Shown one piece after another: positions 23,101 to 51,431 of a DNA stretch of 59,743 nt; within the stretch, counting starts at the first letter, position 1, and the number at the start of each line of letters is the position of its first letter. A model generated the notes under the pieces. The model searched no databases, was not told the DNA's origin, and saw only the letters and a program-made list of their open reading frames with translations. The translations under genes were made by a program, and so were the position numbers. This DNA is from a virus: positions 1 through 59,743 of IMG/VR virus record IMGVR_UViG_3300015263_000360. One strand, 5' to 3'.

Positions 23101-25762
23101 CAGGCCTAAGACCGTGGAGCTGTCTGCAGACACAATAGCAGCGGCAGTGGTGGCTAAGTACTATCTTGAAGCTCGCTATGGTAAGGAAGGCGGGGAAGTC
23201 GGCAAATTTGCTAAGTCTATCGTGGACTGGGGACACACTGCCATTGTTGACAAGCTTCGTCACTACGGAATGCTCTCGGATAAAGAGGTAAGCGACCTTA
23301 AGGCTAACGGCGAGTGGTGGATTCCTCTTGTTTCTGCCATGGATCACGAGTCCTTCCCCACGGAAAGCATCCCGAATGAGGGAGCTAGAGGCGCTCTGGC
23401 GAATCTACGTGGATTCAGCGGTGAGATCATCCACCCTCTAGAGGAGATGATTGACCGCGCTCAAAAGATCCACATTCTTGTGTCGAATCAGGCTATCCGC
23501 AATGCAGCTCTCGCGGCCATTACTGTGGATCCACGAACTGGGCAGGCTTATTCGGCGGAGCACCTCAAGGCGATTGGGGTGGAGCGTCTGACAGAAAGAG
23601 TGCACCGTCAGATCACGCCACAGGAGTGGCAACAACTCCCTCCGAGCGAAAGAGCGCAGTACACGGTCAAAGGTACCACTAAGTACTACTCCGTGCTAGA
23701 TGAACCTATTGACCGTATGTCGTTCTCGTGGTGGGCAAAGCAGAATTCAGGGAAACTTCCTCACGTGTATTCTCGTTGGATGAATGGGAGGGTTGAGTAC
23801 TATACAATCACCAACAGCGAGATCAAGGAAGCCATAGATTCGATCCCGCCCAAGCAGCTTGGTCCAATGATGAAGCTGCTCTCGGCCACTACACGGTTTG
23901 TTGGTAGCATGATCACCCACGGTCCTATGTTCATTCTGAACATGCCGTTTAAGGACTTCCCGAATGCTATCAACAGAAGCAAGTCTGGTATGAACGTGCT
24001 CACTATCGTCCCTGACTTCATTCGCGGACTAGGAGCAGCTCTGCCGGAGATTTTCCCCACTCTGATGCAGGAGTTTCCTGAGCACTTCGGTCTCTACGCC
24101 AACCGAAGAAAGGGTCTGGCATCACAGACTTCGTTCATGTCCACCTTCAATGAGGCTGTTTCTTCTATTTACTTCCAGAAGGAAGGCTATGAACTCCTTC
24201 CTGACCGCAATGGAGTGAAGCCGCCCAAAACTCTTCGGGCCATGAGAGCAGTCTGGCACGATATAGTGGCGGGCGGTACGAAGGCCGCTGAAGAAACGGT
24301 GGCCATAAAGACTCTAAAGAGACTGCCATCTGTGCTGCGCACTCCACTGCAGCATGTCACTGCTGGTGCCAAGATGGCCTGGGCCGGACTTGGAGCCTTA
24401 TCGTCGTGGACGGATGCCGCGCTCAGAATGCGTGAACGTGAGATGGTAAAGCGGGGCTTGTTTAGTGAACTCGACCGCTTCCGTGATACGCAGAACAGGC
24501 TAAGGAAGGATCAAGAAGCAATTGACGCCATGGCTAAGATTGGTGATGCTATCCCGGATGATTACATAGATGCCCTGGATAGGCAGATCACCCTAGACTT
24601 CAGCAGAAAGGGCGATGTGGTGCAGAAGATCGCAGCGGCCAAGATGTTTGCTGGCCCCATGTTCCAAGACACCACAACCACATTGCAGCGGCTGTTCTCG
24701 CCCAATGGAGCAGAGCGTGCCGCTTTCATTCTACGAGCATTGTCGTCGTACACGATGCCTGCGATTGTCAACTATCTCAGATGGTATGATGACGACGACT
24801 GGAGAAAGCTGTCCGCTTGGGACAAGTATTCCTACTTCCACTTATGGAAGAATGACGACACCTCGTTCAAGAAGGTTCCTAATGGCCTTGGTGTGATGAG
24901 CGTGTTGTTCAAGGACATCCCAATCGGCATTATGGAAATGGTCTCTAATCGTGACCAATACGCCATGGAGAAACTTAAGAATCAAATCGTAGAGCAGACA
25001 CCCCTCATCTTTGTTCCTGTCGTGCAGGACGCCAAGGAGTGGCTTGTCAATGTCATGCCTACAATTCTAGAACCCGTGGCAGAAGTGGGGGTGAACTGGA
25101 ACACGTTCGCCAACGCTCCTGTGGATCCTTATGACAAGTTCACGAGCGCTCCTCGCCCTGAGGATCGCGGACTTGCCAAGTATGGGGTAATTGAGAAGTT
25201 CCTTGCTAATGCCATGGGAACCTCTCCACTCAAGGTGGGGCATGTGCTTCGCAGCACATTCCCTGGAGTGGGACAGATTGCCTACGGAGGGGTCAACGAG
25301 GTTCTAACCTCTGTGTACAGACACATCACAGGGGACAATGAGGTGGGTTCCGAGTACAAGGCTACACCCAAAGAGATCGTGCTCAAGCTTGACACAGGTA
25401 GAACCTGGGGTCCAGCGTCTCAGCCTGTCAATGACCTGTACTTCGCCTATGATAGGGCGGCCAAGGCTCACAAGTCTATGACAAAGGCTTATGAAAGCGG
25501 CTACACGGCTAAGGGTGACGCTATCTGGAAGGGATCTCCTGAGCTAGCCTACTATGATCTTCTGAAATCTGGTTACGGTATGATCACACAACTCAAGATT
25601 AAGAAGGCGCAGTACCTTAAGGCTAGTAACGAACCAGATTCCGTGAAGGAACTTACCTCTACAGAGGTATTTGACAGACAAATGACGATGCTTGCGGATG
25701 AGATCCTAGCAGAGATGCGAAGAGCCTCCTCTCGCACACCAGCACAAGGAATAAAAAAATAA
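17117..25762 (+). CDS. Giant polyvalent virion protein with HEVLH metallopeptidase motif and LPD38-like end
   Basis: 2,881 residues, the largest gene. Residues about 190-270 contain Ala/Gly-rich hydrophobic stretches; 870-960 look coiled-coil. A zinc-peptidase motif HEVLH in STLIHEVLHGLLE lies near residue 1502. From about 2265 onward, ITHGPMFILNMPFKDFPNA and later RQITLDFSRKGD resemble the large-polyvalent-protein domain LPD38. Proteins of this type are carried in the capsid and injected with DNA. N4-like virion RNA polymerase was considered, but I see no RNA polymerase motifs. Injection, peptidoglycan or proteolytic roles are inference. Confidence 0.8.
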   Translation: MPNDFLDPFKWSTAELEFKDPFTWTDPDPWEDRGIFERNTDTGEIRLKAIPGALGGLSEDYYKQHEEITKDKDSILSDLDLTNWGKEDSSNPAYNLALGAGVGLSRMGTDIYHGGSSVYWDMIGAGWDAIGAEDLADQAESYARYHKEVKQEYQDAYQELRPTVNPKDDGILDQFITGENDPWKKFNDFAFFFGENAAPMFAASGLGSVASLATRGAFTAAEAGGFITQALYGADTFQDSYLETREQGLSVIPAAAAAGSAAIISGKLERYGFENIMRPGQGIIRSTIEGALKEGITEGTQQLATGTINEVMPVAMNEGIKGLVDPNQIQWGDFFKEVRENTLGGAFIGGPIKGGITGINRLLAAEQKKPLADVRFDELSEKQKESLNKDLAVLKTTMYGRGLGQLGYSDIHRPYVEAFLTKWGHVTDFKNGLEEAIRQEADAFMRSKSSTLKSLSETQVQAETLGNMEFTENPAPTEKPPIDVDHEEDIPDFWEILQRDVPQQQAPNDWRTVQKDFQSRLNAAETIMDTFGVLDAETVRSIDLGFLAFIGDGRSGLLTPAQRERAINLYERMARVATDKKDISTVFSTLELLQSDADLLPQATADQLAPLFQQLDQVRSIDTDITVKSQAVNAAIASIKDQFGGNITSQAEDLLADLQADLISQADEIRASSSEADPIVRKLNALAANVGSLLPSRKQATPSTTQEEEFQAMDSYATDIHTVAKSVGDDVDLLRSLFNSMVTTRVNMGSTPETGVGLSTREVQTMSRQLMDDVNVQELMKQILTKGEQDILTAAANGMPIQNAETAIDWAAVEERVLTARVGAIDNKWRKAAQQASAQGRDSLFFKVMGGKPHQDSAIKSARVSAQASSDLMSQIWEKRKEVDELRKLLRKAKRIGVTYGDDQQAALIDLYQDSYDTASESLAHHEREVSNLTRARKLVEEAEAALWDTAFDTDKSGDIDLAVKDSDRKLAVDTLIYSLKREVFAHASSRDLNDPNERTAVVKSIADVLTRAGVTKKRALRSDRARAYQALIQSGHVLPFNTFLEYEKAVKTQAFPPIPLIEHFVPAGVAEDIYGFLVAHEEAAGDESQIQPPTDAERIALARAKMFLRKYANAMVHGLPREDTTSWGQQRLWGAVTNKLDKDSGKHANAVRSGILLERTYKKLSFLRAIIRQGEQAIKEAKGLKMGGSKVNPGWIQKLETELANLRQEEKNVRQFLGNLSPKGRFYGPAGTAYSSASYGLKISEFWKVLPELRQDLEQGLVTPSTELKGDPLHKTVQDKYTEFSEEEDPSKREVVEAVQTDMASSTGVDLGRPNRVRQITDLEVMRLMAPDIYAQAHERADVLINFYQVAKGLGYTFRAGAVTEAALSEPLLTPAKEQALSYLERFYDAAVEAVGVVGTPANIANMMLEAGSRPESIRLGVALVARLVDRATVQSGMSRIDAVRMIVPHVLAVEENPDVAAGEKAEGPYGEMRGGANPVILLNTEPVTGFDRYHKGSTLIHEVLHGLLESGAIRKLLPPEQIARLELFLGEQIPEFGAIQKKKKISVRGHELFASGLERVASLHESEDPVLNRAFIALREDAVDAFTSLTKDGVFSNTSGVATFGFPMINGTAEVYATLFSGDKAPMHILPRLAVPRQFSTVVGDSVDGIIIHPGSRIANEIQSISGLNISWAMFDDIFKALDDASLIAAGAVERIAQMKRTAPKSTPGLTYNDFVENVLGLDPKNINDEYSKVLRDAHKLSLDFRTDKKRIGNRASMIQQIDLTTHRASEGGEIALMLRAMRDLTYPLPFGDTGTAQTPSSRPTALREQIAHSRLDKEVADATAPLAGVQLDTVEKVIDHYLRLSASPFTNPEDISGKSAVQTAFHKLWAVVKNPGKYFDSRTIDLERILRSHGFTSEYFRLYNQAGVLAQARENVEHDVIVYQNGKWVSIGEGLQPRIDRIPPEMREDTFRYLAARRTLELVARNKRLMDKYETDLLKWEAGEYEGKFRPDRPKTVELSADTIAAAVVAKYYLEARYGKEGGEVGKFAKSIVDWGHTAIVDKLRHYGMLSDKEVSDLKANGEWWIPLVSAMDHESFPTESIPNEGARGALANLRGFSGEIIHPLEEMIDRAQKIHILVSNQAIRNAALAAITVDPRTGQAYSAEHLKAIGVERLTERVHRQITPQEWQQLPPSERAQYTVKGTTKYYSVLDEPIDRMSFSWWAKQNSGKLPHVYSRWMNGRVEYYTITNSEIKEAIDSIPPKQLGPMMKLLSATTRFVGSMITHGPMFILNMPFKDFPNAINRSKSGMNVLTIVPDFIRGLGAALPEIFPTLMQEFPEHFGLYANRRKGLASQTSFMSTFNEAVSSIYFQKEGYELLPDRNGVKPPKTLRAMRAVWHDIVAGGTKAAEETVAIKTLKRLPSVLRTPLQHVTAGAKMAWAGLGALSSWTDAALRMREREMVKRGLFSELDRFRDTQNRLRKDQEAIDAMAKIGDAIPDDYIDALDRQITLDFSRKGDVVQKIAAAKMFAGPMFQDTTTTLQRLFSPNGAERAAFILRALSSYTMPAIVNYLRWYDDDDWRKLSAWDKYSYFHLWKNDDTSFKKVPNGLGVMSVLFKDIPIGIMEMVSNRDQYAMEKLKNQIVEQTPLIFVPVVQDAKEWLVNVMPTILEPVAEVGVNWNTFANAPVDPYDKFTSAPRPEDRGLAKYGVIEKFLANAMGTSPLKVGHVLRSTFPGVGQIAYGGVNEVLTSVYRHITGDNEVGSEYKATPKEIVLKLDTGRTWGPASQPVNDLYFAYDRAAKAHKSMTKAYESGYTAKGDAIWKGSPELAYYDLLKSGYGMITQLKIKKAQYLKASNEPDSVKELTSTEVFDRQMTMLADEILAEMRRASSRTPAQGIKK

Positions 25763-35246: not shown

Positions 35247-36590
35247 CTAATCCTTGTATGGATCGAATGTACTACTTGGTGCCATGAGAACCACTCGGGG
35301 CTTCAAAGTGTGAAGCACATCAATTGTGCTAGCGTGTAACTTCATCACGTCTTCCATCTTCCTGTAGCACACGGGAGCTTCATCCACTCCGCCTCCTCTA
35401 AGAATCACGTTGGCATCTCTAACCGATTTGGTTAGATCTGATATCCCCACTTGAGGTGGTGCGATAGTGGTGAAAGAATAATCCATCTTCAGGTCTTTCT
35501 TACAGACAGGGCACTTAGGATAGTCTTCTTTAAAGACCGCGCTCGGAGAGAACCTCTCATTCACTCTTGTGCATCCAACGGTACGGCAGTACCAAGTTTT
35601 TGATGTACGAAACTTTCCACGCGCTTGGGTTCTGCTCATCAGTCTACCCGTGCCGTGCACGGTGGAAGAGAGCAGCGCCTTCTGAAGAATTCGAGCCTCA
35701 CTATTCTCTTCAAGTAGAACCTTTCCCATTACAATATGGGCAGGCCCTGTCATGCTGCTTCCGATGAATGAGATCTGTCCCGCATGGGCAGGTGTGGCTC
35801 CCTTACGGTGCACCCACACAGTGCCGATATCTGGATGAGTTTCTTTCCAGATGAAGTTGTGATGATTGTGCACAGCGTAGATTGTTTTGGCACCAAGCAC
35901 CTTAAGCGCTTGATCAATTACCCAGGCTCTTCCTATCTTGGCATAGTCACCGGCAAGATGCATGGCCGTAAGATAATGCTGTGCCTTATCAGACGTGTCC
36001 ACTAGAGTCGACTTGCTGAGGTCGGTTCTATTAGAGAAGGAATGCTCACTACCCCAGGAGTTAAACCCATTGCAAATGTTCCAGCCTAGTCCCCTAGAAC
36101 CGAAGTGTACTGCCACCCACACAGCATTAGTGGATGGTTCTATATAAAGGTTTACAAAATGATTCCCGGAACCTATGGTTCCTAGTTGGTTTCGACCCAG
36201 CTTCTTTAAGCGATCCACTTCTAGCTTTGGGATAGCCTCCCATCTCTCGTCTTCAAAGATCTCGTGGTCGGTTGGAGAGGAACTAGAGGTATTACTTTTT
36301 CCAATCCCAAACGTGAGTGTCTTTTCGAGTTCATCGGCTATCTTGTACCACTCTGAGGGAAGTAAGTCAGACGCCGAGACATTGGTTTTCACGGCCATGT
36401 TCCCGCACCCGATGTCATAGCCAGCACCTGCTATGAGGATACGGTTCTTGAAAGCTAGCACCCCTCCCACCGGAACCACGTGTCCTAAATGCCCATCTGC
36501 CAGAAGCGCACTACGTTCTGCTAGCTTACTACAATCGCGCATTTGTGTTAAGGTATTGGTATCGTGGGAACCGATGATTGTTAGTGTCAT
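35247..36590 (-). CDS. rtcB: RtcB RNA ligase with zinc-ribbon insertion
   Basis: 447 residues. RtcB joins 2',3'-cyclic phosphate and 5'-OH RNA ends using GTP and Mn2+. Metal and catalytic signatures present are GYDIGCG (D59, C62), SGNHF (H144), VHFGSRGLG (H162), HNHHN (241-245) and VHGTGRLMSR, with H312 the expected guanylylated His. An insertion at about 333-365 contains C335, C340, C360 and C363, a zinc-ribbon pattern I do not know from standard RtcB. The neighbouring tRNA array suggests repair of cleaved tRNAs. Confidence 0.92.
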   Translation of the reverse strand: MTLTIIGSHDTNTLTQMRDCSKLAERSALLADGHLGHVVPVGGVLAFKNRILIAGAGYDIGCGNMAVKTNVSASDLLPSEWYKIADELEKTLTFGIGKSNTSSSSPTDHEIFEDERWEAIPKLEVDRLKKLGRNQLGTIGSGNHFVNLYIEPSTNAVWVAVHFGSRGLGWNICNGFNSWGSEHSFSNRTDLSKSTLVDTSDKAQHYLTAMHLAGDYAKIGRAWVIDQALKVLGAKTIYAVHNHHNFIWKETHPDIGTVWVHRKGATPAHAGQISFIGSSMTGPAHIVMGKVLLEENSEARILQKALLSSTVHGTGRLMSRTQARGKFRTSKTWYCRTVGCTRVNERFSPSAVFKEDYPKCPVCKKDLKMDYSFTTIAPPQVGISDLTKSVRDANVILRGGGVDEAPVCYRKMEDVMKLHASTIDVLHTLKPRVVLMAPSSTFDPYKD

Positions 36591-36604: not shown

Positions 36605-37417
36605 TTATACAGGGGGGAGCTCTAGCTTCCACGTGTCTACAAAATCTCGGGCTATCTTCGTGACTACATCCTCGCTTACCCAGGCGAAAGACGCGGCAAG
36701 CCCTGCTTGTTGATCCCAACGTGACTGGTTCCTGGGCTTGTTCGCTTCCTTCACTGCTTCGTTTGTTTTGTTGTAGACCCATTCAACTAGAGCATCATTA
36801 AAGATCCACGTGTTAGGCAGCGTGCGATACTCCAAGCCATAAGGCTTGGGACGAAATGCTCCTATGTTCCCATAGAGTTTCTTTCTATGGTAGTCAGGAG
36901 CAGCTACAAAGAAAGGGATCCCTAGATATGTATCAAGCAAGCTTACTATATCTCTCACGGTTTTGAAGGTCATCTTCTTTAAGGGCTCTAGCCCTAGGTG
37001 TAGATGTCCTCCTGCACTCCGCATGTTCTTGTTAGAGCTGTGCGCAGGCTGAGTCAAAGCACCGCTGTATGCATCGAAGTCTGGGTCACACCCAAAGGTG
37101 CGTGCTTGTGGAGTGGCGAGTTGTTTTTTGCTGAACTCCGCTGATGCACTTTTCAAAAGCCCACAACTGTGAGCTTCAGCAATTGTATTTACAATGGACA
37201 ATCCTTCTTTGATCTTACTTGCGAAGTTACGCAGATCCGCAGATGGACTGATGGTAAACTCAGCGGCCACGTTGTCTTCAAGGATACAAATGTTATCACT
37301 AACCGGGAGGGGCTCGTGCTTCTCTCCGCCCACCTTACCCTCTGCAGACTCTGCTTCATCCCCTCTGCTAAAGAAAACTTCCGGGTCAGCACCGATCGTC
37401 ACTAGCCGAATGTCCAT
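36605..37417 (-). CDS. phiEco32-type COOH-NH2 ligase (amidoligase)
   Basis: 270 residues, start set by TTGGAGACAGT before ATG 37417. Predicted glutamine-synthetase-fold ligase that uses ATP to form an amide between a carboxyl and an amine. Family features are ADPEVFF (near residue 11), EDNVAAEFTISPS, GCDPDFDAYSG, GGHLHLGLE and YGLEYRTLPNTWI. Such proteins were predicted by Iyer and Aravind in phiEco32-like phages. It is next to rtcB and downstream of the tRNA array, about 7 kb from a second amidoligase. The peptide or protein substrate is unknown. Confidence 0.88.
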   Translation of the reverse strand: MDIRLVTIGADPEVFFSRGDEAESAEGKVGGEKHEPLPVSDNICILEDNVAAEFTISPSADLRNFASKIKEGLSIVNTIAEAHSCGLLKSASAEFSKKQLATPQARTFGCDPDFDAYSGALTQPAHSSNKNMRSAGGHLHLGLEPLKKMTFKTVRDIVSLLDTYLGIPFFVAAPDYHRKKLYGNIGAFRPKPYGLEYRTLPNTWIFNDALVEWVYNKTNEAVKEANKPRNQSRWDQQAGLAASFAWVSEDVVTKIARDFVDTWKLELPPV

Positions 37418-37837
37418 ACTGTCTCCAAGAGAAAGAACAACTCGGACGCTCTCAAGTCTGGTGAGTCTGTCCATCGAGCCGCATTTCCGTAACCATTAAC
37501 GTAGGTTCGAATGCTCCAGCCGGGTATGCCAACCAGCTCACCACGTAATCGACAAGAGCTGACCGTCGAAACGGAATCACTATATGTCTATTTAGCAGGT
37601 GACGCTATTTCGAAACCACTTCAGTGGTCTCTTGGCTCGTAGACGTGAGCTACTCGCTTGTATTTAAGGGATACAAGACCCCTGTACAGTGTTAGAAGTG
37701 AGGCCCAACTGTGCTCGGAGAGCTATGGACCGTTGCGCCACTGCCTCGTCCACTCAATAATTATCCATCTCATGATAACTACCACTAGTATTATCGTAAG
37801 TAACCAACCGATAACACCTTTCAATGCCACTCCTATC
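37418..37837. other. Non-coding region between ligase gene and tRNA array
   Basis: About 420 bases with no convincing gene or complete tRNA on either strand. It contains a perfect inverted repeat ACCACT-tc-AGTGGT (37615-37628) and a 7-bp stem CTTGTAT/ATACAAG with a 7-base loop (37657-37677). These could act as RNA structures on the leftward transcript. A plus-strand stretch near 37500 resembles a T-arm but lacks a matching acceptor arm. Confidence 0.5.
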
Positions 37838-37914
37838 TGGTACCCACGGAGGGACTCGAACCCCCAACGCTCGGATTTTAAGTCCGACGACTCTGCCAAT
37901 TGGTCTACGCGGGC
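37838..37914 (-). tRNA. tRNA with UAA anticodon (Leu, short variable loop)
   Basis: Seven-base acceptor stem GCCCGCG/CGTGGGT, A73 and encoded CCA. Anticodon stem TCGGA/TCCGA with loop CTTAAAA gives anticodon UAA, which reads UUA (Leu). The variable loop is only GCGTT, so this is a class I fold, unlike bacterial tRNA-Leu. It resembles the UAG tRNA at 39673. Confidence 0.85.
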
Positions 37915-37943
37915 TCCTAATCATTTCCCCACTCCTTTTATGC

Positions 37944-38020
37944 TGGTGCTCTCGGGAGGACTTGAACCTCCAACCAACAGCTTAGAAGGCTGCCGCTCTA
38001 TCCTGTTGAGCTACAAGAGC
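37944..38020 (-). tRNA. tRNA-Arg (UCU)
   Basis: Acceptor GCTCTTG/CGAGAGC, A73, encoded CCA. Anticodon loop CTTCTAA gives UCU, reading AGA. Normal class I fold. AGA codons are frequent in the phage genes, so this tRNA likely supports their translation. Confidence 0.93.
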
Positions 38021-38430
38021 TATGTGGAGTCAGGCTCCCACCACTGCCTTTGACCCCGTGTGCACCCCCAACAGCTCATGACGAACCCTTGGTGCACTGC
38101 CCTAACGTCTTGAGCTTGGAGGAGGTACTAGCTCCTGTCACCCCAAACCAAGACGGTAAAAGTTGGAGGATAGAGAGATCTGCCTTTGGTCGGAGAACCT
38201 TCCATTACCAGATAGCAAGTCTATGAGGCACAGTGGCCTTGACTTGGCTCTCATGAGAGCGCTGTCTGACTAGTTATCTTCGCCTACGCTAGCTCAGCGA
38301 CATCACATACCAGACTGTTTAGCGTGATACTAAAGAGCTGCTCTCTCGGATTTAGCAGGGTCCGGTTCCTGGGTGTTTCCAATTCGGGAGCCGACATGAC
38401 TCCGTCGTGAGGCACACCTGGCCAGAACTT
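38021..38430. other. 410 bp non-coding stretch inside the tRNA array
   Basis: No tRNA, protein gene or terminator is recognisable. It contains a perfect 14-base palindrome GCTCTCATGAGAGC at 38247-38260. It might be a decayed tRNA region or an unannotated small RNA. Confidence 0.5.
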
Positions 38431-38508
38431 TGGTCGGGACGAGAGGATTTGAACCTCCGACCCCTCGCTCCCAAAGCGAGTGCTCTACGCAACCTGAGCT
38501 ACGTCCCG
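38431..38508 (-). tRNA. tRNA-Pro (UGG)
   Basis: Acceptor CGGGACG/CGTCCCG with encoded CCA. Stem CTCGC/GCGAG and loop TTTGGGA give anticodon UGG, reading CCA. The 5' part (38485-38508) also encodes the end and stop of the gene at 38485-38901. Confidence 0.93.
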
Positions 38509-38901
38509 TGTATTTTCTTTCCATGTTGTGACACTCAGCAACTTCTCGCGCGGGATGAACCAGTATGCTACCAACCCAGTTACCTCGTTCCCAGGGTAGC
38601 GTCCCGCTTCGTTTCCTAACAACGCCCTCAGTTCATCCACCAGAACAGGTTGAGAGGATGTGTTTGCTGCCACGATCAGCATCTTCAAGCTAACCCAATT
38701 TCTTAGCTCGATATAATCTCGAATGGCTTGTAGCTTGTTTAGTACTTCAGGCGTGGGTCCAGTACCAAAACCACCGAAGGAATAACAACCGCAGTTGTTC
38801 TTGTCTCCTGACAGGTTCCCATATACCCATCCGTTTTGTTGATCACGGATTTCATACTGTCGGTATTGATCTAGTAGCTTGTACAAATAGAAGGTTGTCA
38901 C
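38485..38901 (-). CDS. Hypothetical protein ending inside tRNA-Pro
   Basis: 138 residues, GTG start chosen because AGGAG lies 7 bases upstream; the longer ORF is a tRNA-Gln shadow. Tyr-rich N-terminus (FYLYKLLDQYRQYEIRD), Cys/Gly-rich centre (NNCGCYSFGGFGTGP) and helical LNKLQAIRDYIEL. No family recognised. The last codons (RDVAQVA) and the TAG stop are formed by the 5' end of tRNA-Pro, an overlap of 24 bases. Expression and tRNA maturation from one transcript could therefore compete. Confidence 0.65.
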   Translation of the reverse strand: MTTFYLYKLLDQYRQYEIRDQQNGWVYGNLSGDKNNCGCYSFGGFGTGPTPEVLNKLQAIRDYIELRNWVSLKMLIVAANTSSQPVLVDELRALLGNEAGRYPGNEVTGLVAYWFIPREKLLSVTTWKENTRDVAQVA

Positions 38902-38926
38902 TTGGTATCTCCTGGAAGATTTAGAT

Positions 38927-39003
38927 TGGCACGAGAGGTAGGACTTGAACCTACAACCTCTGGGTTCAAAGCCCAGCGCTCTAACCAATTGAGCTACTCT
39001 CGA
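38927..39003 (-). tRNA. tRNA-Gln (UUG)
   Basis: Stem CTGGG/CCCAG with loop CTTTGAA gives UUG, reading CAA. G73 and an unpaired 1-72 position (U-U) match the weak first pair and discriminator typical of bacterial tRNA-Gln. CCA is encoded. Confidence 0.92.
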
Positions 39004-39006
39004 TCA

Positions 39007-39082
39007 TGGTGGACCGCAAGAGATTCGAACTCTCACTCCCCTGCGTGCAAGGCAGGTGCTTTCCCAGTTAAGCTAGCGGCCC
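39007..39082 (-). tRNA. tRNA-Ala (UGC)
   Basis: Acceptor GGGCCGC/GCGGTCC with A73 and CCA. Anticodon loop CTTGCAC between CCTGC and GCAGG gives UGC, reading GCA. I do not see the usual G3-U70 pair: position 3 is G and position 70 is C in this alignment. Confidence 0.88.
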
Positions 39083-39084
39083 TC

Positions 39085-39161
39085 TGGTACCGGAGAGCGG
39101 ACTCGAACCACTGACATTCTGCTTGTAAGACAGATGCTCTAACCACCTGAGCTACTCCGGT
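39085..39161 (-). tRNA. tRNA-Val (UAC)
   Basis: Acceptor ACCGGAG/CTCCGGT, A73, CCA encoded. Stem TCTGT/GCAGA with loop CTTACAA gives UAC, reading GUA. Normal class I structure, two bases from tRNA-Ala. Confidence 0.93.
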
Positions 39162-39212
39162 ATATCGTGTTGCGAGTATGCTGGTTGTGTTTACACCACT
39201 GCTAAAGGAACT

Positions 39213-39288
39213 TGGCTCTAGAGACTGGGATCGAACCAGTGTCCTTCCGGTTAACAGCCGGCTGCTCGTCCAACCGAGCTCCTCTAGA
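39213..39288 (-). tRNA. tRNA-Asn (GUU)
   Basis: Acceptor TCTAGAG/CTCTAGA with G73 and CCA, as in bacterial tRNA-Asn. Loop CTGTTAA gives anticodon GUU. The outermost anticodon-stem pair is a G-A mismatch. One of the three array members not using a U34 wobble base. Confidence 0.9.
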
Positions 39289-39298
39289 ATATCAAGAG

Positions 39299-39349
39299 CC
39301 GCCAGAGGTCGGAGGTCCGGCCCCTAATTTATCGGCGTAGCCGGGCGGC
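39299..39349 (-). ncRNA. Structured non-tRNA element in the tRNA array
   Basis: Between tRNA-Asn and tRNA-Ser, GCCGCC and GGCGGC close a 51-base element that also contains a small hairpin CGGC-TAC-GCCG and GC-rich pairing segments. It has no T-arm or anticodon arm and no T-tract, so it is neither a tRNA nor a typical terminator. It may be a processing signal or small RNA. Confidence 0.35.
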
Positions 39350-39358
39350 ATATTTACT

Positions 39359-39450
39359 TGGCTGAGGCAGTAGGATTTGAACCTACGGGACCGCAATGTG
39401 TCCAGTGTGTTAGCAACACACCGCATTAAGCCAGACTCTGCCATGCCTCA
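39359..39450 (-). tRNA. tRNA-Ser (GCU)
   Basis: 92 bases with the long class II variable arm expected for serine. Acceptor TGAGGCA/TGCCTCA, G73, CCA. Stem GTGTG/CACAC and loop TTGCTAA give anticodon GCU, reading AGC/AGU. It shows that class II folding is kept for Ser in this genome but not for the Leu-anticodon tRNAs. Confidence 0.92.
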
Positions 39451-39451
39451 G

Positions 39452-39529
39452 TGGGGTGACCGATGGGACTTGCACCCACAACCACCGGGTCCACAACCCA
39501 GCGCTCTATCTAATTGAGCTACGGTCAAC
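39452..39529 (-). tRNA. tRNA-His (GUG)
   Basis: Anticodon loop TTGTGGA between CTGGG and CCCGG gives GUG. A 5' extra G(-1) can pair with C73, the histidine identity element, and CCA is encoded. Position 1-72 is a U-C mismatch. Confidence 0.9.
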
Positions 39530-39672
39530 ACGGGATGAAACCCCTAAGTGATACCATTGACTGGGAGGTTCGTCAACGGGTTGGAGCCTGTACATCCAGG
39601 TCTCTACCCAGCCTAGCATCCATCTTGGGTACCAATGGTTTTCCATCAAGCGGTCCCAAGCACATGTAAGTA

Positions 39673-39749
39673 TGGTGCTCATGAGAGGATTCGAACCTCC
39701 AACATCTAGATTCTAAGTCTAGCGACTCTACCAATTGGCCTACATGAGC
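39673..39749 (-). tRNA. tRNA with UAG anticodon (Leu, short variable loop)
   Basis: Acceptor GCTCATG/CATGAGC, A73, CCA. Stem CTAGA/TCTAG and loop CTTAGAA give anticodon UAG, reading CUA (Leu). Variable loop is only ATGTT, a class I fold. D-arm and general sequence resemble the UAA tRNA at 37838, suggesting a shared origin. CUA is frequent in phage genes. The anticodon is not complementary to a stop codon. Confidence 0.85.
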
Positions 39750-39782
39750 TATAGGGAAGGAGGTAAATTATTAAAATTTTCC

Positions 39783-39799
39783 TTGCTCGGGCGGAGCAA
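39783..39799 (-). terminator. Possible terminator after the gene at 39814
   Basis: Read leftward, TTGCTC-CGCCC-GAGCAA forms a 6-bp hairpin followed by GGAAAATTTT. It lies 15 bases past the 39814 stop, before tRNA-Leu(UAG). The T run is short and offset, so activity is uncertain. Confidence 0.45.
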
Positions 39800-39813
39800 T
39801 GGTTCCTTCCCCT

Positions 39814-40266
39814 TTAAATTGCTTCTAGCCAGGTGTCTATCTCATGTTCTGGTTTGAGATAATACGAACTGTGTTCCAAGTCTTTAACCGCATGGTTAAA
39901 CACCGGGTTCTTTCGCATTATCTCCTGTATGTAGCACAGCGTGTCCCGTTTAGGAGTGAAGTGCCAATAACTAAGAGGTGTCTCTCTTTCGTATTTACTT
40001 TTACCCAGATGAAAAATCTTGAAAGGTTCAGGCACCTCAGGGAGATGGAGGTTAGAGCCCTGTATTATAGTGGCTTCTTTAGCAGCCATCCAGAAAAGCC
40101 ATGGGAGCACCATCTTTTCATTAGGGTACACGCTTGCCACGTACCCTCCACAGTTGGCCGGCAGGGGAAAGAAAGGAGGGTAGTGGTAAAATCCCCCATC
40201 TTTATAAGTCGCTCCATGAAGGTTCCAGGCGCTAACGTTGTCTAACCACTCTTGCAGCTTGTACAT
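39814..40266 (-). CDS. Hypothetical protein within the tRNA array
   Basis: 150 residues, aromatic and Pro-rich (GGFYHYPPFFPLPANCGGYV, about residues 24-43), with a central hydrophobic stretch (KMVLPWLFWMAAKEA) that could be buried or membrane-near. No family recognised. AGGACGG precedes the ATG. Flanked by tRNA-Gly upstream and tRNA-Leu downstream, so it shares their transcript. Confidence 0.65.
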   Translation of the reverse strand: MYKLQEWLDNVSAWNLHGATYKDGGFYHYPPFFPLPANCGGYVASVYPNEKMVLPWLFWMAAKEATIIQGSNLHLPEVPEPFKIFHLGKSKYERETPLSYWHFTPKRDTLCYIQEIMRKNPVFNHAVKDLEHSSYYLKPEHEIDTWLEAI

Positions 40267-40282
40267 GTTCCGTCCTATATGT

Positions 40283-40356
40283 TGGAGCGAGTAATCGGAC
40301 TCGAACCGATCTCTCTAGCTTGGAAGGCTAGGGCACAACCTCTATACCACACTCGC
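40283..40356 (-). tRNA. tRNA-Gly (UCC)
   Basis: 74 bases, acceptor GCGAGTG/TACTCGC with one G-U pair, U73 as in bacterial tRNA-Gly, CCA encoded. Stem CTAGC/GCTAG with loop CTTCCAA gives UCC, reading GGA. A terminator-like hairpin ends three bases upstream. Confidence 0.93.
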
Positions 40357-40358
40357 AT

Positions 40359-40388
40359 AAAAAGGTGGCCAGATCCGGCTTGGCCACC
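40359..40388 (-). terminator. Intrinsic terminator upstream of tRNA-Gly
   Basis: Read leftward: GGTGGCCA (40388-40381), loop, TGGCCACC (40371-40364), then TTTTT. Perfect 8-bp stem. It follows the 40416 gene by 27 bases and lies 3 bases before the tRNA-Gly 5' end, so readthrough would set the level of the downstream tRNAs. Confidence 0.8.
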
Positions 40389-40415
40389 AAGGACAACATG
40401 AACAGTGTTGACAGC

Positions 40416-40649
40416 TTAGCCAGCGGTCAGTTCGATTCGGCCCGACTGCATGGTGCGGGTACCGAACGACTTCTCCGGCACACCGTACTCAGCGAGGGCA
40501 CCCTCGAGGTCATTGCGCAGCCCAAAGAGTCCAGTCTTCAGACTCTTCGGGAAGCGAAACTTCCCGAGAACAGCGGCGAGTGCAGCAGCCGTGTCCTCCG
40601 ACACTGTGATGTTGATGACGACCTTTTCCTTAACGGAAACTCCCATCAT
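40416..40649 (-). CDS. Small protein of unknown function
   Basis: 77 residues from ATG 40649 (the adjacent ATG at 40646 is possible); ACAGGAGATGC gives a strong site. Starts MMGVSVKEKVVINITVSED, then Ala-rich helix (TAAALAAVLGKFRFP). The GC-rich codon use resembles the 48-49 kb module more than its neighbours. No known family. Followed by a strong terminator, so it may be expressed as a monocistronic peak. Confidence 0.65.
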   Translation of the reverse strand: MMGVSVKEKVVINITVSEDTAAALAAVLGKFRFPKSLKTGLFGLRNDLEGALAEYGVPEKSFGTRTMQSGRIELTAG

Positions 40650-40737
40650 GCATCTCCTGTGTGTAACCCGTTTGTAAAGAACCATCACGGTGGGTTAGTC
40701 GTGAGCTGGCTCGCGCGAGATTATTCTTAGATGGCGC

Positions 40738-40812
40738 TGGAGCCCTTTCCAGGAATCGAACCCGGCTCTGAGGTTTACAAAACCCCGGCATCGCCAACAA
40801 TGCTTAAAGGGC
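40738..40812 (-). tRNA. tRNA-Thr (UGU)
   Basis: Acceptor GCCCTTT/AAAGGGC with U73 and CCA. Stem GGGGT/ACCTC (one G-U) and loop TTTGTAA give UGU, reading ACA. Begins three bases after the stop of the 40815 gene. Confidence 0.9.
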
Positions 40813-43953: not shown

Positions 43954-44029
43954 TGGCTTTCCTCAAGAGAGGACCTAGCGCCATGGACAATGCTGCAAAC
44001 AACACCACCAGTACTAGGATCTCTATCAT
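43853..44029 (-). CDS. Possible small membrane protein overlapping two genes
   Basis: 58 residues starting MIEILVLVVLFAALSMALG, a clear single membrane segment, followed by an Arg/Asp-rich tail. The ATG overlaps the amidotransferase stop as ATGA. However the last 34 codons run over the start of the 43684-43953 gene in another frame, so the C-terminal part may be accidental. Confidence 0.35.
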   Translation of the reverse strand: MIEILVLVVLFAALSMALGPLLRKANDGPRRIRGRNLRDYNDSGASRGTFWSDRDSHR

Positions 44030-44883
44030 GCTGCAATCAGTCCTTCCATTAACGCCTTAGATGCGCAACTGTAGCACAAGCGAACCTGTTTGTCAATGTA
44101 ACAAGAGTCGTTCTCTAGAAATTCCTCTTGGCATTGGTCGCACGTGGCACCCGCGTCTATCCAATCCCACCCATTGGTTCTTAGCTCTGTTACCCTGATC
44201 CTGGGGAGACCATAGTTCGGAGTCGTATCCACCACGGTTGGGGTATGGGCGAATTTTCCTTTACTCCCACCCCCACCACTCTCTGTCTGGGAAGTAAGCT
44301 GGTACTGCTGGTAGTGACTTTTTTTTTCGTAGTCTTTCCAGCCCTCGTTTGAGTAGTGAACCCCAGTGGTTTCATCCTTAGACCAGGACTTGGGTTGTGT
44401 AATCGCCAATCTCCCCAGGTTGTCCAGGAAAACCAGTCTGCTACTCCCCGCCTTGTCTGCCACGAGGTTAAGAATAGCCTGATTCGTGTGGAAGTTACGT
44501 GGTAACTTCTGCAGCACATCATGCATGTATTGCTTGGTGTCCGAGTTGTTATCTTTCAGGTTTTTATTATAGTAACCCGGAATTACTCCATTGTGGAAGA
44601 GGAGGAGATTCTTGTTAACCCAGAACGGATGTACATTCTGCACGCTCACTGTACCGTGGGTGCGTATCCTGAAATGCAGAACGAATTGACTGTTCTTGTG
44701 TTCGTCCCAATGCTTGCGGTATAACTTCCACAATCGCTTCTTACTGTTGAGTTCTTTAACCACAGACAGGCGGCCGTTGTGCGCATAAGCAAACCCCCCA
44801 CCATCTGAGTTCCGTTCCCACAATCTATAGAACTGACCCTTCGATAGAGCCACTTTCCTGGGGCAGATTGCAATAATGCACAT
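44026..44883 (-). CDS. Class II glutamine amidotransferase with zinc-finger C-terminus
   Basis: 285 residues. The N-terminal nucleophile C2 (MCIIAICPRK), NSDGGG (25-30), HFRIRTHG (70-77) and HNGVI (97-101) match class II amidotransferases, which release ammonia from glutamine. A Gly/Ser linker near 205-215 leads to a C-terminal four-cysteine ribbon (CDQCQ near 248, then LCYSCA near 270). Start overlaps the amidoligase stop, so the two likely work together, the first supplying ammonia or acting in amide exchange. Confidence 0.88.
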   Translation of the reverse strand: MCIIAICPRKVALSKGQFYRLWERNSDGGGFAYAHNGRLSVVKELNSKKRLWKLYRKHWDEHKNSQFVLHFRIRTHGTVSVQNVHPFWVNKNLLLFHNGVIPGYYNKNLKDNNSDTKQYMHDVLQKLPRNFHTNQAILNLVADKAGSSRLVFLDNLGRLAITQPKSWSKDETTGVHYSNEGWKDYEKKSHYQQYQLTSQTESGGGGSKGKFAHTPTVVDTTPNYGLPRIRVTELRTNGWDWIDAGATCDQCQEEFLENDSCYIDKQVRLCYSCASKALMEGLIAA

Positions 44884-46583
44884 TACGCTACACTCCTATA
44901 GCCCTTAGTCAAGGGTCGATGTATCACCTTGATATTACGAATCAAAGGACTCTTGTTCCTTTTCGTGTCAGTCAACAGCTTGACATCTAACCAGCTAAGC
45001 GTGGCTTTGTGATACTTCTGTAGCTGTTCCACTGGAAACACCACGCGAGTACCGTGTTGAGCAGTCCAGATTTCCACATCGGATATCTCGATGCGCTCAA
45101 GGTCGAGTCCCATATAGTAACAGGACCATCGCAGCATTGGCTGCCGATTTGGCTCTCCTGCGTCCCGTCCGGCCGTTAGCGTGGCCCTGCCTACCATCTC
45201 GTTGGTTTCTGAATCCCTTATGTAAAATGTTACAGAGGCAGGAGACGATTCTAAATCTGACTGATGATCAAACCAATGATGTGCGGGATTAAGATGGTTC
45301 AGTGTCAGCCTAGGGTTACCCGAGATAAAGATTGCTGATGATTCCACCTCATGGTACTTTGCAGCGAGCATTGCTTCACGGCACATAGAAAGAGCTTGCC
45401 TCTCATTCCAGCATGGCCCCTGTAAAATGAAGTAAGCCATGGGTATCGCTTCTCCGTCTGGTGTGGTGTGCTGAAAGTTTACCACGGCTGTGCTTGTCAA
45501 AGGCCCGATGGCTCCCACACGAGAGTTACGCTCAGCAATCTTTCCCTCAAGAGAAGAGGGCTTTAAAGCAGCATTGCCCACGGTAATCTTTGAGATCTTG
45601 GGTGACTTGATATTGGCGGCCTTGTTGATGCACTTCTGGGTCTTAGCTGCAGCATAAGGGAGTTCCTTCTTATGCTTTAAGAGCCACTCCACAAATCCCG
45701 GTATGCTCATCTGCTGAAAAGAGATGGCCGCTGTATACCTCCTCACGGCTTCCACGAGTTCCACGTTTGCCATGATCGAGTCAGGATTTAAAGTGCCCCG
45801 AAATACTCTGATCTCCACGGTATGAGCGGTGCTGTTTACCACCGAATGATGGTCGTCATGTGTTCCCGCAAGCAGTGCTGGATTAATACCATGGGTAAAC
45901 GCATATCTTGCCGGGTCCGTTTCATACGGTAGGAGATAAGTGGTGCATGCTCTCCTAACAAATGCCTTCGGATCCTTGTGAAACCATGCAAACCGTAAGA
46001 CCTTCTTCAAATCAGTGCGATTGCTGTAAGCCAAGAAGAATGCCGGATTCCGGTGCACAAATGCCTGGAACCTGAGCTGGTGTAGATCTCCCCAAAAGGC
46101 TGATTTTGAAATGTGCACGTGCATACCGCAAGTGTTCCCTTTGTATGAAGTGAACCCTGCAGTTTGCAAGTCTTTGCACAATTTCTTCCAAAGAGGATAG
46201 CTCTCGTGCCAGAAGTTCAGCGTCCAAGGATGACTGACAAGCTCCACGCCATCCTCAAGAGAAGCGTCTTGCTTCACATAGAGCTGCAGCTTTCTTATCA
46301 TGGGCTCCACGTCTTGGATAGCCGCGTAGGACCACTGTGTTCTACCATGATAGGTGTTAGGCTCTCCTCTATTCCAAAGCCACACTTCAGAAGGCGTGTC
46401 CTGATTGACCGTGGTAGTCCTTTGTCTTACTCCTCTCCACCAGCTCTCTAACTTCTCTCGTGCAGGAGGTAGGAGTTCTGTTTCGAGTTCCACGCCAAAG
46501 AAAACATGGGCGTTCTCATTTTCTTTTTTTGTCCAGGAGAAACGTGGTGTGGGTTTGTGTCCCCATGCGTTTACTTCGATCAT
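44883..46583 (-). CDS. Amidoligase_2-type ATP-dependent ligase
   Basis: 566 residues. Glutamine-synthetase-like amidoligase features are FGVELETE (29-36), DGVELVSHP (111-119), CGMHVHIS (152-159) and TVEIRVFRGTL (255-265). Known members are predicted to make isopeptide or amide bonds. A C-terminal extension of roughly 200 residues (from about 365) has no recognised family and may select the substrate. Directly followed by a coupled amidotransferase gene. A weaker GAGGAC site lies 8 bases before the ATG. Confidence 0.88.
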   Translation of the reverse strand: MIEVNAWGHKPTPRFSWTKKENENAHVFFGVELETELLPPAREKLESWWRGVRQRTTTVNQDTPSEVWLWNRGEPNTYHGRTQWSYAAIQDVEPMIRKLQLYVKQDASLEDGVELVSHPWTLNFWHESYPLWKKLCKDLQTAGFTSYKGNTCGMHVHISKSAFWGDLHQLRFQAFVHRNPAFFLAYSNRTDLKKVLRFAWFHKDPKAFVRRACTTYLLPYETDPARYAFTHGINPALLAGTHDDHHSVVNSTAHTVEIRVFRGTLNPDSIMANVELVEAVRRYTAAISFQQMSIPGFVEWLLKHKKELPYAAAKTQKCINKAANIKSPKISKITVGNAALKPSSLEGKIAERNSRVGAIGPLTSTAVVNFQHTTPDGEAIPMAYFILQGPCWNERQALSMCREAMLAAKYHEVESSAIFISGNPRLTLNHLNPAHHWFDHQSDLESSPASVTFYIRDSETNEMVGRATLTAGRDAGEPNRQPMLRWSCYYMGLDLERIEISDVEIWTAQHGTRVVFPVEQLQKYHKATLSWLDVKLLTDTKRNKSPLIRNIKVIHRPLTKGYRSVA

Positions 46584-46595
46584 AACATGTCCTCG

Positions 46596-46675
46596 TGGTG
46601 GAGCGGGTGGGAGTTGAACCCACTTATTGACAGAGGTTATAAGCCTCTCGCTTTATACCGATCAGCCACCGCTCG
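46596..46675 (-). tRNA. tRNA-Ile (UAU)
   Basis: Stem AGAGG/CCTCT and loop CTTATAA give anticodon UAU, reading AUA. T-arm GTGGG/CCCAC and CCA are present. Position 1-72 is C-C, so only six acceptor pairs form in this alignment. The variable loop is slightly enlarged. It is 6 kb from the main array, and its anticodon loop supplies the stop codon of the 46637 gene. Confidence 0.87.
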
Positions 46676-50038: not shown

Positions 50039-50276
50039 GGTGCCACTCCTTCCAACCTAAGGCCACCACTCCAACCATGGAGCTGAGGCCAGTGAGTTGG
50101 TTCCAGAGAGAGATGTGCTTGTCCATCTCACGCTTGTAGATACTCCCAATAGCGCCGTAGACCTCTGCAATCTCGATCTCTCCAGAGGTGCGAGCCCTTT
50201 CTTCAGCCGCGTCTGCCACGTGCATCCTTCGCCAAGCTAACACCGCTTGGTTCCAGTGCCACAGCGCGTCACTCAT
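50031..50276 (-). CDS. Small helical protein with C-terminal hydrophobic segment
   Basis: 81 residues. Helical charged N-terminus (WRRMHVADAAEERARTSGEIEIAEV) and a weakly hydrophobic C-terminal stretch (LWNQLTGLSSMVGVVALGW, about residues 57-75) that may be a membrane tail. Starts in the SLOG gene's stop (ATGA). Confidence 0.6.
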   Translation of the reverse strand: MSDALWHWNQAVLAWRRMHVADAAEERARTSGEIEIAEVYGAIGSIYKREMDKHISLWNQLTGLSSMVGVVALGWKEWHHA

Positions 50277-50725
50277 CGCTTCTCCTTTCCAAGGTTGACC
50301 ACCTTGATCCCCCGAGCCTTGGCAGCACGCAAAGCCTGCCCAGTGCCTCCCACCACCTCACCACCAGGAGTCCAGCAGATCACCAGATCCACCGGAGAGT
50401 TCAAGTCGTGCCCCAGAAGAATCATTATGTTGCGGCCATGAAGCTTACGGACATAGTCAGCGCATGCCCGCCAGTTCGGGTGGTACTTCGAAGCCAGCTC
50501 GATTGCCTGCGGCGTGGCATCAGAAGCGCGGTAAACCTCGATGAACCCCCAATACAGGCCATCACCACCAGCAGACCGCGCTCCCTCCTGGAAGGCAGCA
50601 TCAGCACCACGAGCGCCTCCGGTTCGAAGGGTGTGCCCAGCTTCAGCTCCCCTCCGCCCGATGTCTCGCATCTTGGCCAACACGCTCTCCGGCGTGCTAC
50701 GAGCGCCAATGCCAGCGTAGATCAC
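50273..50725 (-). CDS. SLOG-superfamily (DprA/lysine-decarboxylase-like fold) nucleotide-binding protein
   Basis: 150 residues from GTG 50725, which overlaps the upstream stop as GTGA and follows GGAGGTGG. Rossmann-like signature: IYAGIGARSTPESVL at the start, LRTGGARGADAAFQEGA (about 34-50), then DLVICWTPGGEVVGGTGQAL (about 111-130). SLOG proteins bind nucleotides or NAD/ADP-ribose derivatives and often sit in conflict systems. Coupled to a NADAR-like gene, implying joint handling of an ADP-ribose-type compound; substrate is inference. Confidence 0.82.
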   Translation of the reverse strand: MIYAGIGARSTPESVLAKMRDIGRRGAEAGHTLRTGGARGADAAFQEGARSAGGDGLYWGFIEVYRASDATPQAIELASKYHPNWRACADYVRKLHGRNIMILLGHDLNSPVDLVICWTPGGEVVGGTGQALRAAKARGIKVVNLGKEKR

Positions 50726-51246
50726 CACTCCACCTCCTCTTCTTGCCACTCCTCAAGTTCCCGCTCCAACTGCACGTCCAGCTCCTCCTCAATGGCCCGC
50801 TGCATCTCAGTGCGCGTGCCCATCCACCACTCCACCAGCCAACGGAAGCCAGCATCGCGAACCACCCCATCAAACACATAGTAATGTTCGAAGGGCAGGT
50901 GGGAGTTACGAAACCTCTCGCACATGGCCGGGTGCGCCTTCAGCTTCGCCTCCAAGGCCCGAATGATCTCTTCCTTGAACTCCTCCTCAGGGAGATTCAC
51001 CACCCGCTTCAACATGCGGCCCAGCTTCTTCGCCTCAAACCCACTCAAACGGCGAAGACGGTCGTCGCGAGTACCGAGCCAGTACCAAAAGCCTTCCACG
51101 CTCTCGAAAGAACCATGCTCGGGAAGCACCATCGGCTGTCGCGCGAAGTTGGACATCCACCTCCCAAGCACAGTGCGCCCCCGAGAGTAGATATTCACAT
51201 GCTCCACGCCATCCAAGGCCGGAATCAACTTACGACCCACGCTCAT
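50722..51246 (-). CDS. NADAR/YbiA-like protein
   Basis: 174 residues from ATG 51246 (GGAGGAG upstream). NADAR-type order: LGRWMSNFARQPMVLPEHGSFESVEGFWYWL (about 28-58), KKLGRMLKRV, LEAKLKAHPAMCERFRNS (about 98-115), and VVRDAGFRWLVEWWMG near 128-143. NADAR proteins cleave N-glycosidic bonds of ADP-ribose compounds; some remove ADP-ribose from guanine in DNA. Acidic C-terminal extension. Followed by the SLOG gene through a GTGA overlap. Assignment by pattern needs profile confirmation. Confidence 0.72.
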   Translation of the reverse strand: MSVGRKLIPALDGVEHVNIYSRGRTVLGRWMSNFARQPMVLPEHGSFESVEGFWYWLGTRDDRLRRLSGFEAKKLGRMLKRVVNLPEEEFKEEIIRALEAKLKAHPAMCERFRNSHLPFEHYYVFDGVVRDAGFRWLVEWWMGTRTEMQRAIEEELDVQLERELEEWQEEEVEW

Positions 51247-51248
51247 GG

Positions 51249-51431
51249 TTAGTCTCCTCCCCCACAACGTGCGCAGTTGCACCCCACGTGCTCCTGCTCA
51301 GCCTCAGCCATCAAGTCCTGCCTCCACTGCTCGAGGGCCTCGTCCAAAAGCTCGGCCTCATAAGCAGTTAGCTCGGAGCCTTTCATATCCTCGCCCCACT
51401 CCCGCCAGAGTTCTTTAACGGTCTCAGGCAT
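51249..51431 (-). CDS. Small acidic protein with C-terminal Cys cluster
   Basis: 60 residues, helical and acidic, ending CNCARCGGGD, a possible metal-binding CxCxxC tail. Starts behind TGAGG. No known family. Confidence 0.6.
   Translation of the reverse strand: MPETVKELWREWGEDMKGSELTAYEAELLDEALEQWRQDLMAEAEQEHVGCNCARCGGGD

What the first reader, a model, noticed from the sequence alone, without database searches (positions are those of the whole stretch)
44026..46583. Coupled amidoligase plus glutamine amidotransferase, with a third ligase at 36605
Seen: overlapping genes for an Amidoligase_2 enzyme (motifs at residues 29, 111, 152, 255) and a class II amidotransferase with intact C2 nucleophile and an added zinc ribbon, plus a phiEco32-type COOH-NH2 ligase at 36605-37417. 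Known: Iyer and colleagues predicted that such enzymes make amide or isopeptide bonds. Inference: the phage modifies a host or phage peptide, protein or cell-wall component. The unassigned 200-residue end of the amidoligase may define the target. The substrate is unknown, so this is the best candidate for an undescribed system.
Basis: partly seen in the sequence, partly recalled or inferred. Interest (0 to 1): 0.75.

Follow-up and report, generated by a model that had tools for sequence, protein, structure and literature searches.

The report
Phage amidoligase–glutaminase gene pair
This phage carries a widespread but biochemically untested gene pair, an ATP-using amide-forming enzyme and a glutamine-splitting partner, that probably adds ammonia to an acid group on an unknown target; the pair has been described before in other phages, and what it modifies is still open.

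Summary
44883-46583(-) encodes an Amidoligase_2 protein (AL2, PF12224) and 44026-44883(-) a class II glutamine amidotransferase (GATase); the two overlap by TAATG. 36605-37474(-) is a phiEco32/LUZ24-type COOH-NH2 ligase (PF14395). All catalytic-type residues are kept. The AL2 model has the glutamine-synthetase-like fold; the GATase model resembles the GlmS glutaminase.

The coupling is not chance. Of 79 other viral loci chosen on the GATase alone, 74 have AL2 directly upstream, always in that order, and no third gene recurs. It is not undescribed: OM43 phages, mycobacteriophage Marvin and PaP3/phiEco32 cassettes carry the pair.

The third ligase is probably separate. Among 36 records it occurs with this pair only here. 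In other phages it sits in a COOH ligase-AL2-GATase-ATP-grasp cassette built from a different AL2/GATase subfamily. Here it stands alone beside rtcB, and no ATP-grasp or cyclotransferase homologue was found.

Best explanation: a two-subunit, glutamine-dependent, ATP-driven amidating enzyme; the substrate is unknown, with a cell-wall or protein carboxylate most likely. Unusual points are an orphan 257-residue C-terminus in place of the usual N-terminal accessory region, and a zinc ribbon on the GATase. New member of a known kind.

The parts
44883..46583 (-). Amidoligase_2 (AL2), 566 aa, GS-like fold; catalytic core residues ~1-320
   Evidence: PF12224 29.5 bits; catalytic residues invariant in 71 proteins; model core mostly pLDDT >90, Foldseek to YbdK, glutamine synthetase, Dop, glutamate-cysteine ligase
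44883..45656 (-). Orphan C-terminal region of the AL2 (residues ~310-566), in place of the N-terminal accessory region of relatives
   Evidence: no relative in viral contigs or phages; pLDDT mostly 30-60 with predicted strands; relatives mostly have 140-350 residues before the GxExE motif and 7-83 after the core
44026..44883 (-). Class II glutamine amidotransferase (GATase), 285 aa, N-terminal nucleophile Cys2, start overlaps the AL2 stop (TAATG)
   Evidence: GATase_4 29.2 bits; C2, R72, N98, G99, D115 invariant; model closest to GlmS glutaminase; overlap read directly
44065..44142 (-). Zinc ribbon at the C-terminus of the GATase, residues 248-273 (CxxC...CxxC)
   Evidence: read from the translation; CxxC pairs in AL2 N-terminus and/or GATase C-terminus in 56 of 71 pairs
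36605..37474 (-). phiEco32/LUZ24-type COOH-NH2 ligase (likely start 37417); probably a separate element
   Evidence: PF14395 46.6 bits, PHROG 3815 E=3.7e-65; catalytic-type residues kept, four positions conserved in 81-82 of 84 relatives changed here: T74, T141, A192, P220

Best explanation
The AL2 and the GATase are the two subunits of one glutamine-dependent amidating enzyme. The GATase hydrolyses glutamine with its N-terminal cysteine and passes ammonia to the AL2. The AL2, a GS-fold enzyme, activates a carboxylate with ATP, most likely as an acyl phosphate, and forms a primary amide. Accessory parts (zinc ribbons, and here the orphan C-terminus) probably bind the target. Shown by sequence and comparison: both domains, intact catalytic residues, near-obligate adjacency. 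Inferred: physical complex, ammonia transfer, product. The target is not determined; my first guess is a free carboxylate of the host cell wall or of a protein, changed to the phage's advantage, for example against superinfecting phages.
For: Adjacency: 74 of 79 other viral loci picked on the GATase alone have AL2 directly upstream, 28 of 32 dereplicated groups, with 3 AL2 elsewhere among 1266 called genes. All 7 stand-alone GATase loci in cellular genomes also have AL2 upstream. TAATG stop-start overlap. Active sites conserved throughout. GS-like fold for AL2; GlmS-like glutaminase for the GATase, ahead of EgtC. CxxC zinc-ribbon pairs occur on AL2 only (29), GATase only (9) or both (18) of 71 pairs, as expected if the two proteins share one complex. 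No third gene recurs with the pair beyond generic replication genes in 7 of 37 groups, so the acceptor is probably something always present in the cell. Precedents: MurT-GatD amidates peptidoglycan (PMC3267633, abstract) and AsnB/LtsA class II enzymes amidate diaminopimelate (own knowledge).
Against: No biochemical work on any phage AL2 was found in the held library. No AL2-GATase fusion was seen. Four records of one phage group hold the GATase without a detectable AL2, so the GATase may sometimes act alone or with another enzyme. An ATP-grasp-like gene occurs near the pair in 4 of 37 groups, so a larger pathway is possible in some phages. Nothing in the sequence names the substrate.
Confidence: 0.6

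Rival explanations
1. Ligase plus gamma-glutamyl hydrolase, as in EgtA-EgtC: AL2 joins an amino acid or amine to a carboxylate and the class II domain later removes a glutamyl group rather than supplying ammonia.
For: EgtC is a structural neighbour of the GATase model (E about 6e-5) and EgtA is a GS-like ligase (own knowledge); weak EgtC profile hit (E 0.07).
Against: GlmS-type glutaminases score far better in fold (1.2e-8) and sequence. The residues aligned to the GlmS glutamine site are invariant.
Confidence: 0.15
2. Part of the phiEco32/LUZ24 'peptidoglycan modification' cassette: the COOH-NH2 ligase, AL2 and GATase act in one pathway that is merely split into two places in this genome.
For: In 77 of 80 loci chosen on the COOH-NH2 ligase, AL2 and/or GATase genes lie in the same cluster, usually with an ATP-grasp gene (PaP3). 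All three enzyme types are in this window.
Against: The window's AL2 and GATase belong to the other subfamily (GATase tree), which lacks the COOH-NH2 ligase in 35 of 35 other records. No ATP-grasp or cyclotransferase homologue was found here. The ligase has four otherwise conserved positions changed and lies next to rtcB.
Confidence: 0.2
3. DNA hypermodification: the pair amidates a carboxylate on a modified base, like the glutaminase-bearing relatives of CmoY.
For: Phage amide ligases acting on 5-carboxymethylcytosine exist, and one cluster of them carries a glutaminase domain (PMC12783734).
Against: No CmoA over cut-off in any of 36 records and no C5-methyltransferase in the window (2 of 36 records). 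CmoY is an asparagine-synthetase type, not AL2.
Confidence: 0.05

Closest known systems
AL2-GATase pair of Methylophilales (OM43) phages MEP401/MEP402 (PMC10580990)
   Same: Same two families, same order, overlapping genes; MEP401 GATase 37.8% identical to the window's over 66% of it
   Different: MEP401 AL2 carries a ~330-residue N-terminal region with CxxC motifs and no C-terminal extension; its GATase lacks the zinc ribbon
Mycobacteriophage Marvin/Tesla (cluster S) AL2-GATase pair
   Same: Adjacent AL2 and GATase, zinc-ribbon cysteines, a C-terminal extension of 158 aa on AL2
   Different: Low identity (25-29%), zinc-ribbon cysteines also at the AL2 N-terminus, 81-base gap between genes
phiEco32/LUZ24/PaP3/RIO-1 cassette (COOH-NH2 ligase, AL2, GATase, ATP-grasp, gamma-glutamyl cyclotransferase)
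   Same: The COOH-NH2 ligase family and the AL2 and GATase families are all present in the window
   Different: Other AL2/GATase subfamily, not clustered, no ATP-grasp or cyclotransferase homologue found in the window
MurT-GatD peptidoglycan amidation (S. aureus)
   Same: Two-gene, glutamine-dependent amidation of a carboxylate (PMC3267633, abstract)
   Different: Mur-ligase fold and a class I-type GATase (own knowledge); unrelated proteins

Membership tests
Amidoligase_2 (PF12224) | Profile score over the curated cut-off | tested here: met
   29.5 bits against 22
Amidoligase_2 (PF12224) | GS-like fold with conserved acidic, His and Arg active-site residues | tested here: met
   Foldseek to YbdK/GS/Dop/GCL; residues invariant in 71 proteins
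Amidoligase_2 (PF12224) | ATP-dependent amide formation | not testable with these tools
   needs enzymology
Class II glutamine amidotransferase | Cys directly after the start Met, plus Arg, Asn-Gly and Asp of the glutamine site | tested here: met
   C2, R72, N98-G99, D115 invariant, aligned to GlmS
Class II glutamine amidotransferase | Ntn glutaminase fold | tested here: met
   1xff E=1.2e-8
Class II glutamine amidotransferase | Glutaminase activity coupled to a synthase | not testable with these tools
   needs enzymology
Phage AL2-GATase two-gene module | AL2 directly upstream of the GATase on the same strand | tested here: met
   TAATG overlap; 74 of 79 viral relatives alike
phiEco32/LUZ24 cassette | COOH-NH2 ligase present | tested here: met
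   PF14395 46.6 bits
phiEco32/LUZ24 cassette | Ligase clustered with AL2, GATase and ATP-grasp genes | tested here: not met
   7.4 kb apart; no ATP-grasp or cyclotransferase homologue in the window; record may be incomplete
CmoA/CmoX/CmoY DNA hypermodification | CmoA and C5-carboxymethyltransferase present | tested here: not met
   neither in the window
EgtA-EgtC type ligase-hydrolase pair | Class II domain acts as gamma-glutamyl hydrolase | tested here: inconclusive
   EgtC is a weaker structural match than GlmS; activity not testable here

The most novel reading that the evidence does not exclude
A self-contained two-gene enzyme, widespread in phages, in which a GS-fold ligase is fed ammonia by a separate class II glutaminase and is aimed at its target by exchangeable accessory domains. 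To my knowledge no GS-fold ligase fed by a class II glutaminase has been shown biochemically. The window's member would carry a new targeting domain (orphan C-terminus) in place of the usual N-terminal one.
Probability: 0.35. Interest if true: 0.6.

Novelty: new member of a known kind. Interest (0 to 1): 0.4.

Why it matters
Phage amide-forming enzymes have been predicted since Iyer and colleagues (2009), and I found no report in the held library of what any phage AL2 does. The comparison here narrows the question: for this subfamily the working unit is two proteins, with no obligatory third gene, so expression of two genes in a laboratory strain should be enough to look for a product. It also separates this pair from the better-known COOH-NH2 ligase cassette, with which it could easily be lumped.

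Tried and rejected
1. Chance neighbourhood: rejected.
2. DNA carboxymethyl-base amidation: no CmoA over cut-off in any of 36 records, C5-methyltransferase in 2 of 36 and not in the window.
3. Known defence system: no PADLOC match for the three enzymes.
4. Window AL2 C-terminus as the relocated N-terminal region of relatives: no match of the N-terminal profile to any window ORF.
5. Relatives of the C-terminus: none in phages or in two viral-contig scans apart from a contig identical over this region.
6. Substrate-making neighbour: no recurrent partner.
7. AL2-GATase fusion as proof of a complex: none in three ORF sets.
8. AL2 elsewhere in the four GATase-only records: none found.
9. An AL2 profile scan from alignment A1 could not run, the alignment being too diverse.
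10. Iyer 2009 and Mageeney 2012 are not held; I rely on papers that cite them.

Full report
What was checked. The window is a 59,743-base virus record. On the minus strand, 44883-46583 encodes a 566-residue Amidoligase_2 protein (29.5 bits, cut-off 22) and 44026-44883 a 285-residue class II glutamine amidotransferase (GATase_4, 29.2 bits, cut-off 23); 36605-37474 encodes a COOH-NH2 ligase (46.6 bits, cut-off 25; PHROG 3815, E = 3.7e-65). The first two genes overlap in TAATG, the second start sharing a base with the first stop.

Active sites. In an alignment of 88 GATases, Cys2, Arg72, His97-Asn98-Gly99 and Asp115 are identical in all 87 sequences that cover them; they correspond to the glutamine site of GlmS. 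In 71 AL2 proteins, Glu32, Glu34, Gly112, Glu114, His155, Arg189, Glu257 and Arg259 never change. Both proteins therefore look catalytically intact. The AL2 model is confident (mostly pLDDT above 90) up to about residue 320 and matches YbdK, glutamine synthetase, Dop and plant glutamate-cysteine ligase in the PDB. The GATase model is closest to the GlmS glutaminase domain (1.2e-8), with PurF and EgtC weaker.

Is the pairing real? I scanned viral contigs with the GATase alignment alone and then searched the 80 kept loci for AL2 with a profile of my own. One kept locus (L009) is a contig identical to the window over this region. Of the other 79 loci, 74 have AL2 directly upstream on the same strand: 38 overlap, 26 lie within 25 bases, 9 within 65 and 1 further. 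After dereplication, 28 of 32 groups have the pair. Only 3 further AL2 genes occur among 1266 called genes. Of the five exceptions, one is cut by the contig end and four belong to one phage group; no AL2 was found anywhere in those four records. In 84,980 cellular genomes the GATase pattern found 12 loci: five are roughly 600-residue proteins of GlmS size, and all seven stand-alone GATases also have AL2 upstream. No third gene family recurs beyond generic replication genes in 7 of 37 groups; an ATP-grasp-like gene occurs in 4 groups (the ATP-grasp label is my reading of its sequence).

Domain architecture. Relatives carry 80-356 residues ahead of the first catalytic motif (most 140-350), often with CxxC pairs, and usually little after the core. 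The window protein has only 29 residues in front and about 257 behind. That C-terminal region has no relative in phages or viral contigs except in a contig identical over this region, and its model is poor. CxxC pairs occur in the AL2 N-terminus only (29 pairs), the GATase C-terminus only (9, including the window), both (18) or neither (15). A module that can sit on either partner is what one expects if both serve one complex; this is suggestive, not proof, and CxxC counting is crude.

The third ligase. In 80 viral loci chosen on this ligase, the usual arrangement is COOH-NH2 ligase, one gene, AL2, GATase, ATP-grasp, or a reordered version, often with a gamma-glutamyl cyclotransferase; 77 of 80 have AL2 and/or GATase beside it (PaP3, Alcaligenes phage). 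Those AL2 and GATase proteins form another subfamily: the window pair scores 323 and 364 bits with its own subfamily's profiles, which included it, but 25.6 and 39.8 bits with the others, and in a tree the window GATase sits within a clade made only of window-type pairs (support 0.95). Conversely, none of 35 other records with a window-type GATase has the COOH-NH2 ligase. In the window it stands alone next to rtcB, no ATP-grasp or cyclotransferase homologue was found, and four positions conserved in 81-82 of 84 relatives are changed (T74, T141, A192, P220) while the catalytic-type residues remain. I therefore treat it as a separate acquisition that may have a changed role. Contigs can be fragments, so absence is weak evidence.

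How it most likely works. A glutaminase without a synthase partner would only waste glutamine; its fixed partner here is a GS-fold ligase, and glutamine synthetase itself joins ammonia to an activated carboxylate. The simplest reading is a split amidotransferase: the GATase makes ammonia, and AL2 uses ATP to put it on a carboxylate. The families, residues and adjacency are shown; complex formation, ammonia transfer and the primary-amide product are inferred. The target is unknown. A cell-wall carboxylate is an attractive guess because cellular two-component amidation of peptidoglycan exists (MurT-GatD, PMC3267633, abstract) and because authors have proposed wall modification against superinfection for phiEco32-like phages (PMC10580990; PMC5498523). 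No experiment supports it, and I give the wall about one chance in three. A DNA-base target was considered because of the recent CmoA-CmoX-CmoY system (PMC12783734), but the required partner genes are absent.

Novelty. The pair is already in the literature: MEP401, MEP402 and over 30 related metagenomic genomes, with pointers to phiEco32 (Iyer et al. 2009) and Marvin (Mageeney et al. 2012). What this study adds is the strength of the pairing, its independence from the COOH-NH2 ligase cassette, and the odd architecture of the window's AL2. It is a new member of a known, biochemically uncharacterised kind.

Noticed in passing
35247-36590 (-), 37838-40812 (-), 46596-46675 (-): An rtcB RNA ligase directly downstream of the COOH-NH2 ligase, beside a run of 12 tRNA genes plus a thirteenth (tRNA-Ile) immediately upstream of the AL2 gene; possible tRNA repair/replacement set.
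   Followed up: partly
17117-25762 (+): A single 2881-residue ORF with an LPD38 'large polyvalent protein' domain near its C-terminus; possibly a protein injected with the DNA.
   Followed up: no
50273-51282 (-): A DprA/SLOG-like protein (PHROG 768) overlapping a PHROG 652 protein; the second resembles NADAR/YbiA-type proteins by eye, but Pfam gave no match.
   Followed up: partly
L095:4799-8856: A Nocardia genome carries two tandem AL2-GATase pairs.
   Followed up: no
L046, L051, L062, L069: A group of large phage contigs keeps the GATase with an intact active site but without a detectable AL2; three of them have a thymidylate-synthase-like gene upstream. What the GATase feeds there is unexplained.
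   Followed up: partly
L105:3995 (COOH-NH2 ligase): The closest relative found of the window's COOH-NH2 ligase (43% identity) also stands alone; its 39-kb record shows no AL2 or GATase match with the profiles used.
   Followed up: partly
L002/L009 (IMGVR_UViG_3300015263_000358): A 12.6-kb contig carries the AL2-GATase region with 100% identical proteins, apparently the same or a near-identical phage.
   Followed up: no
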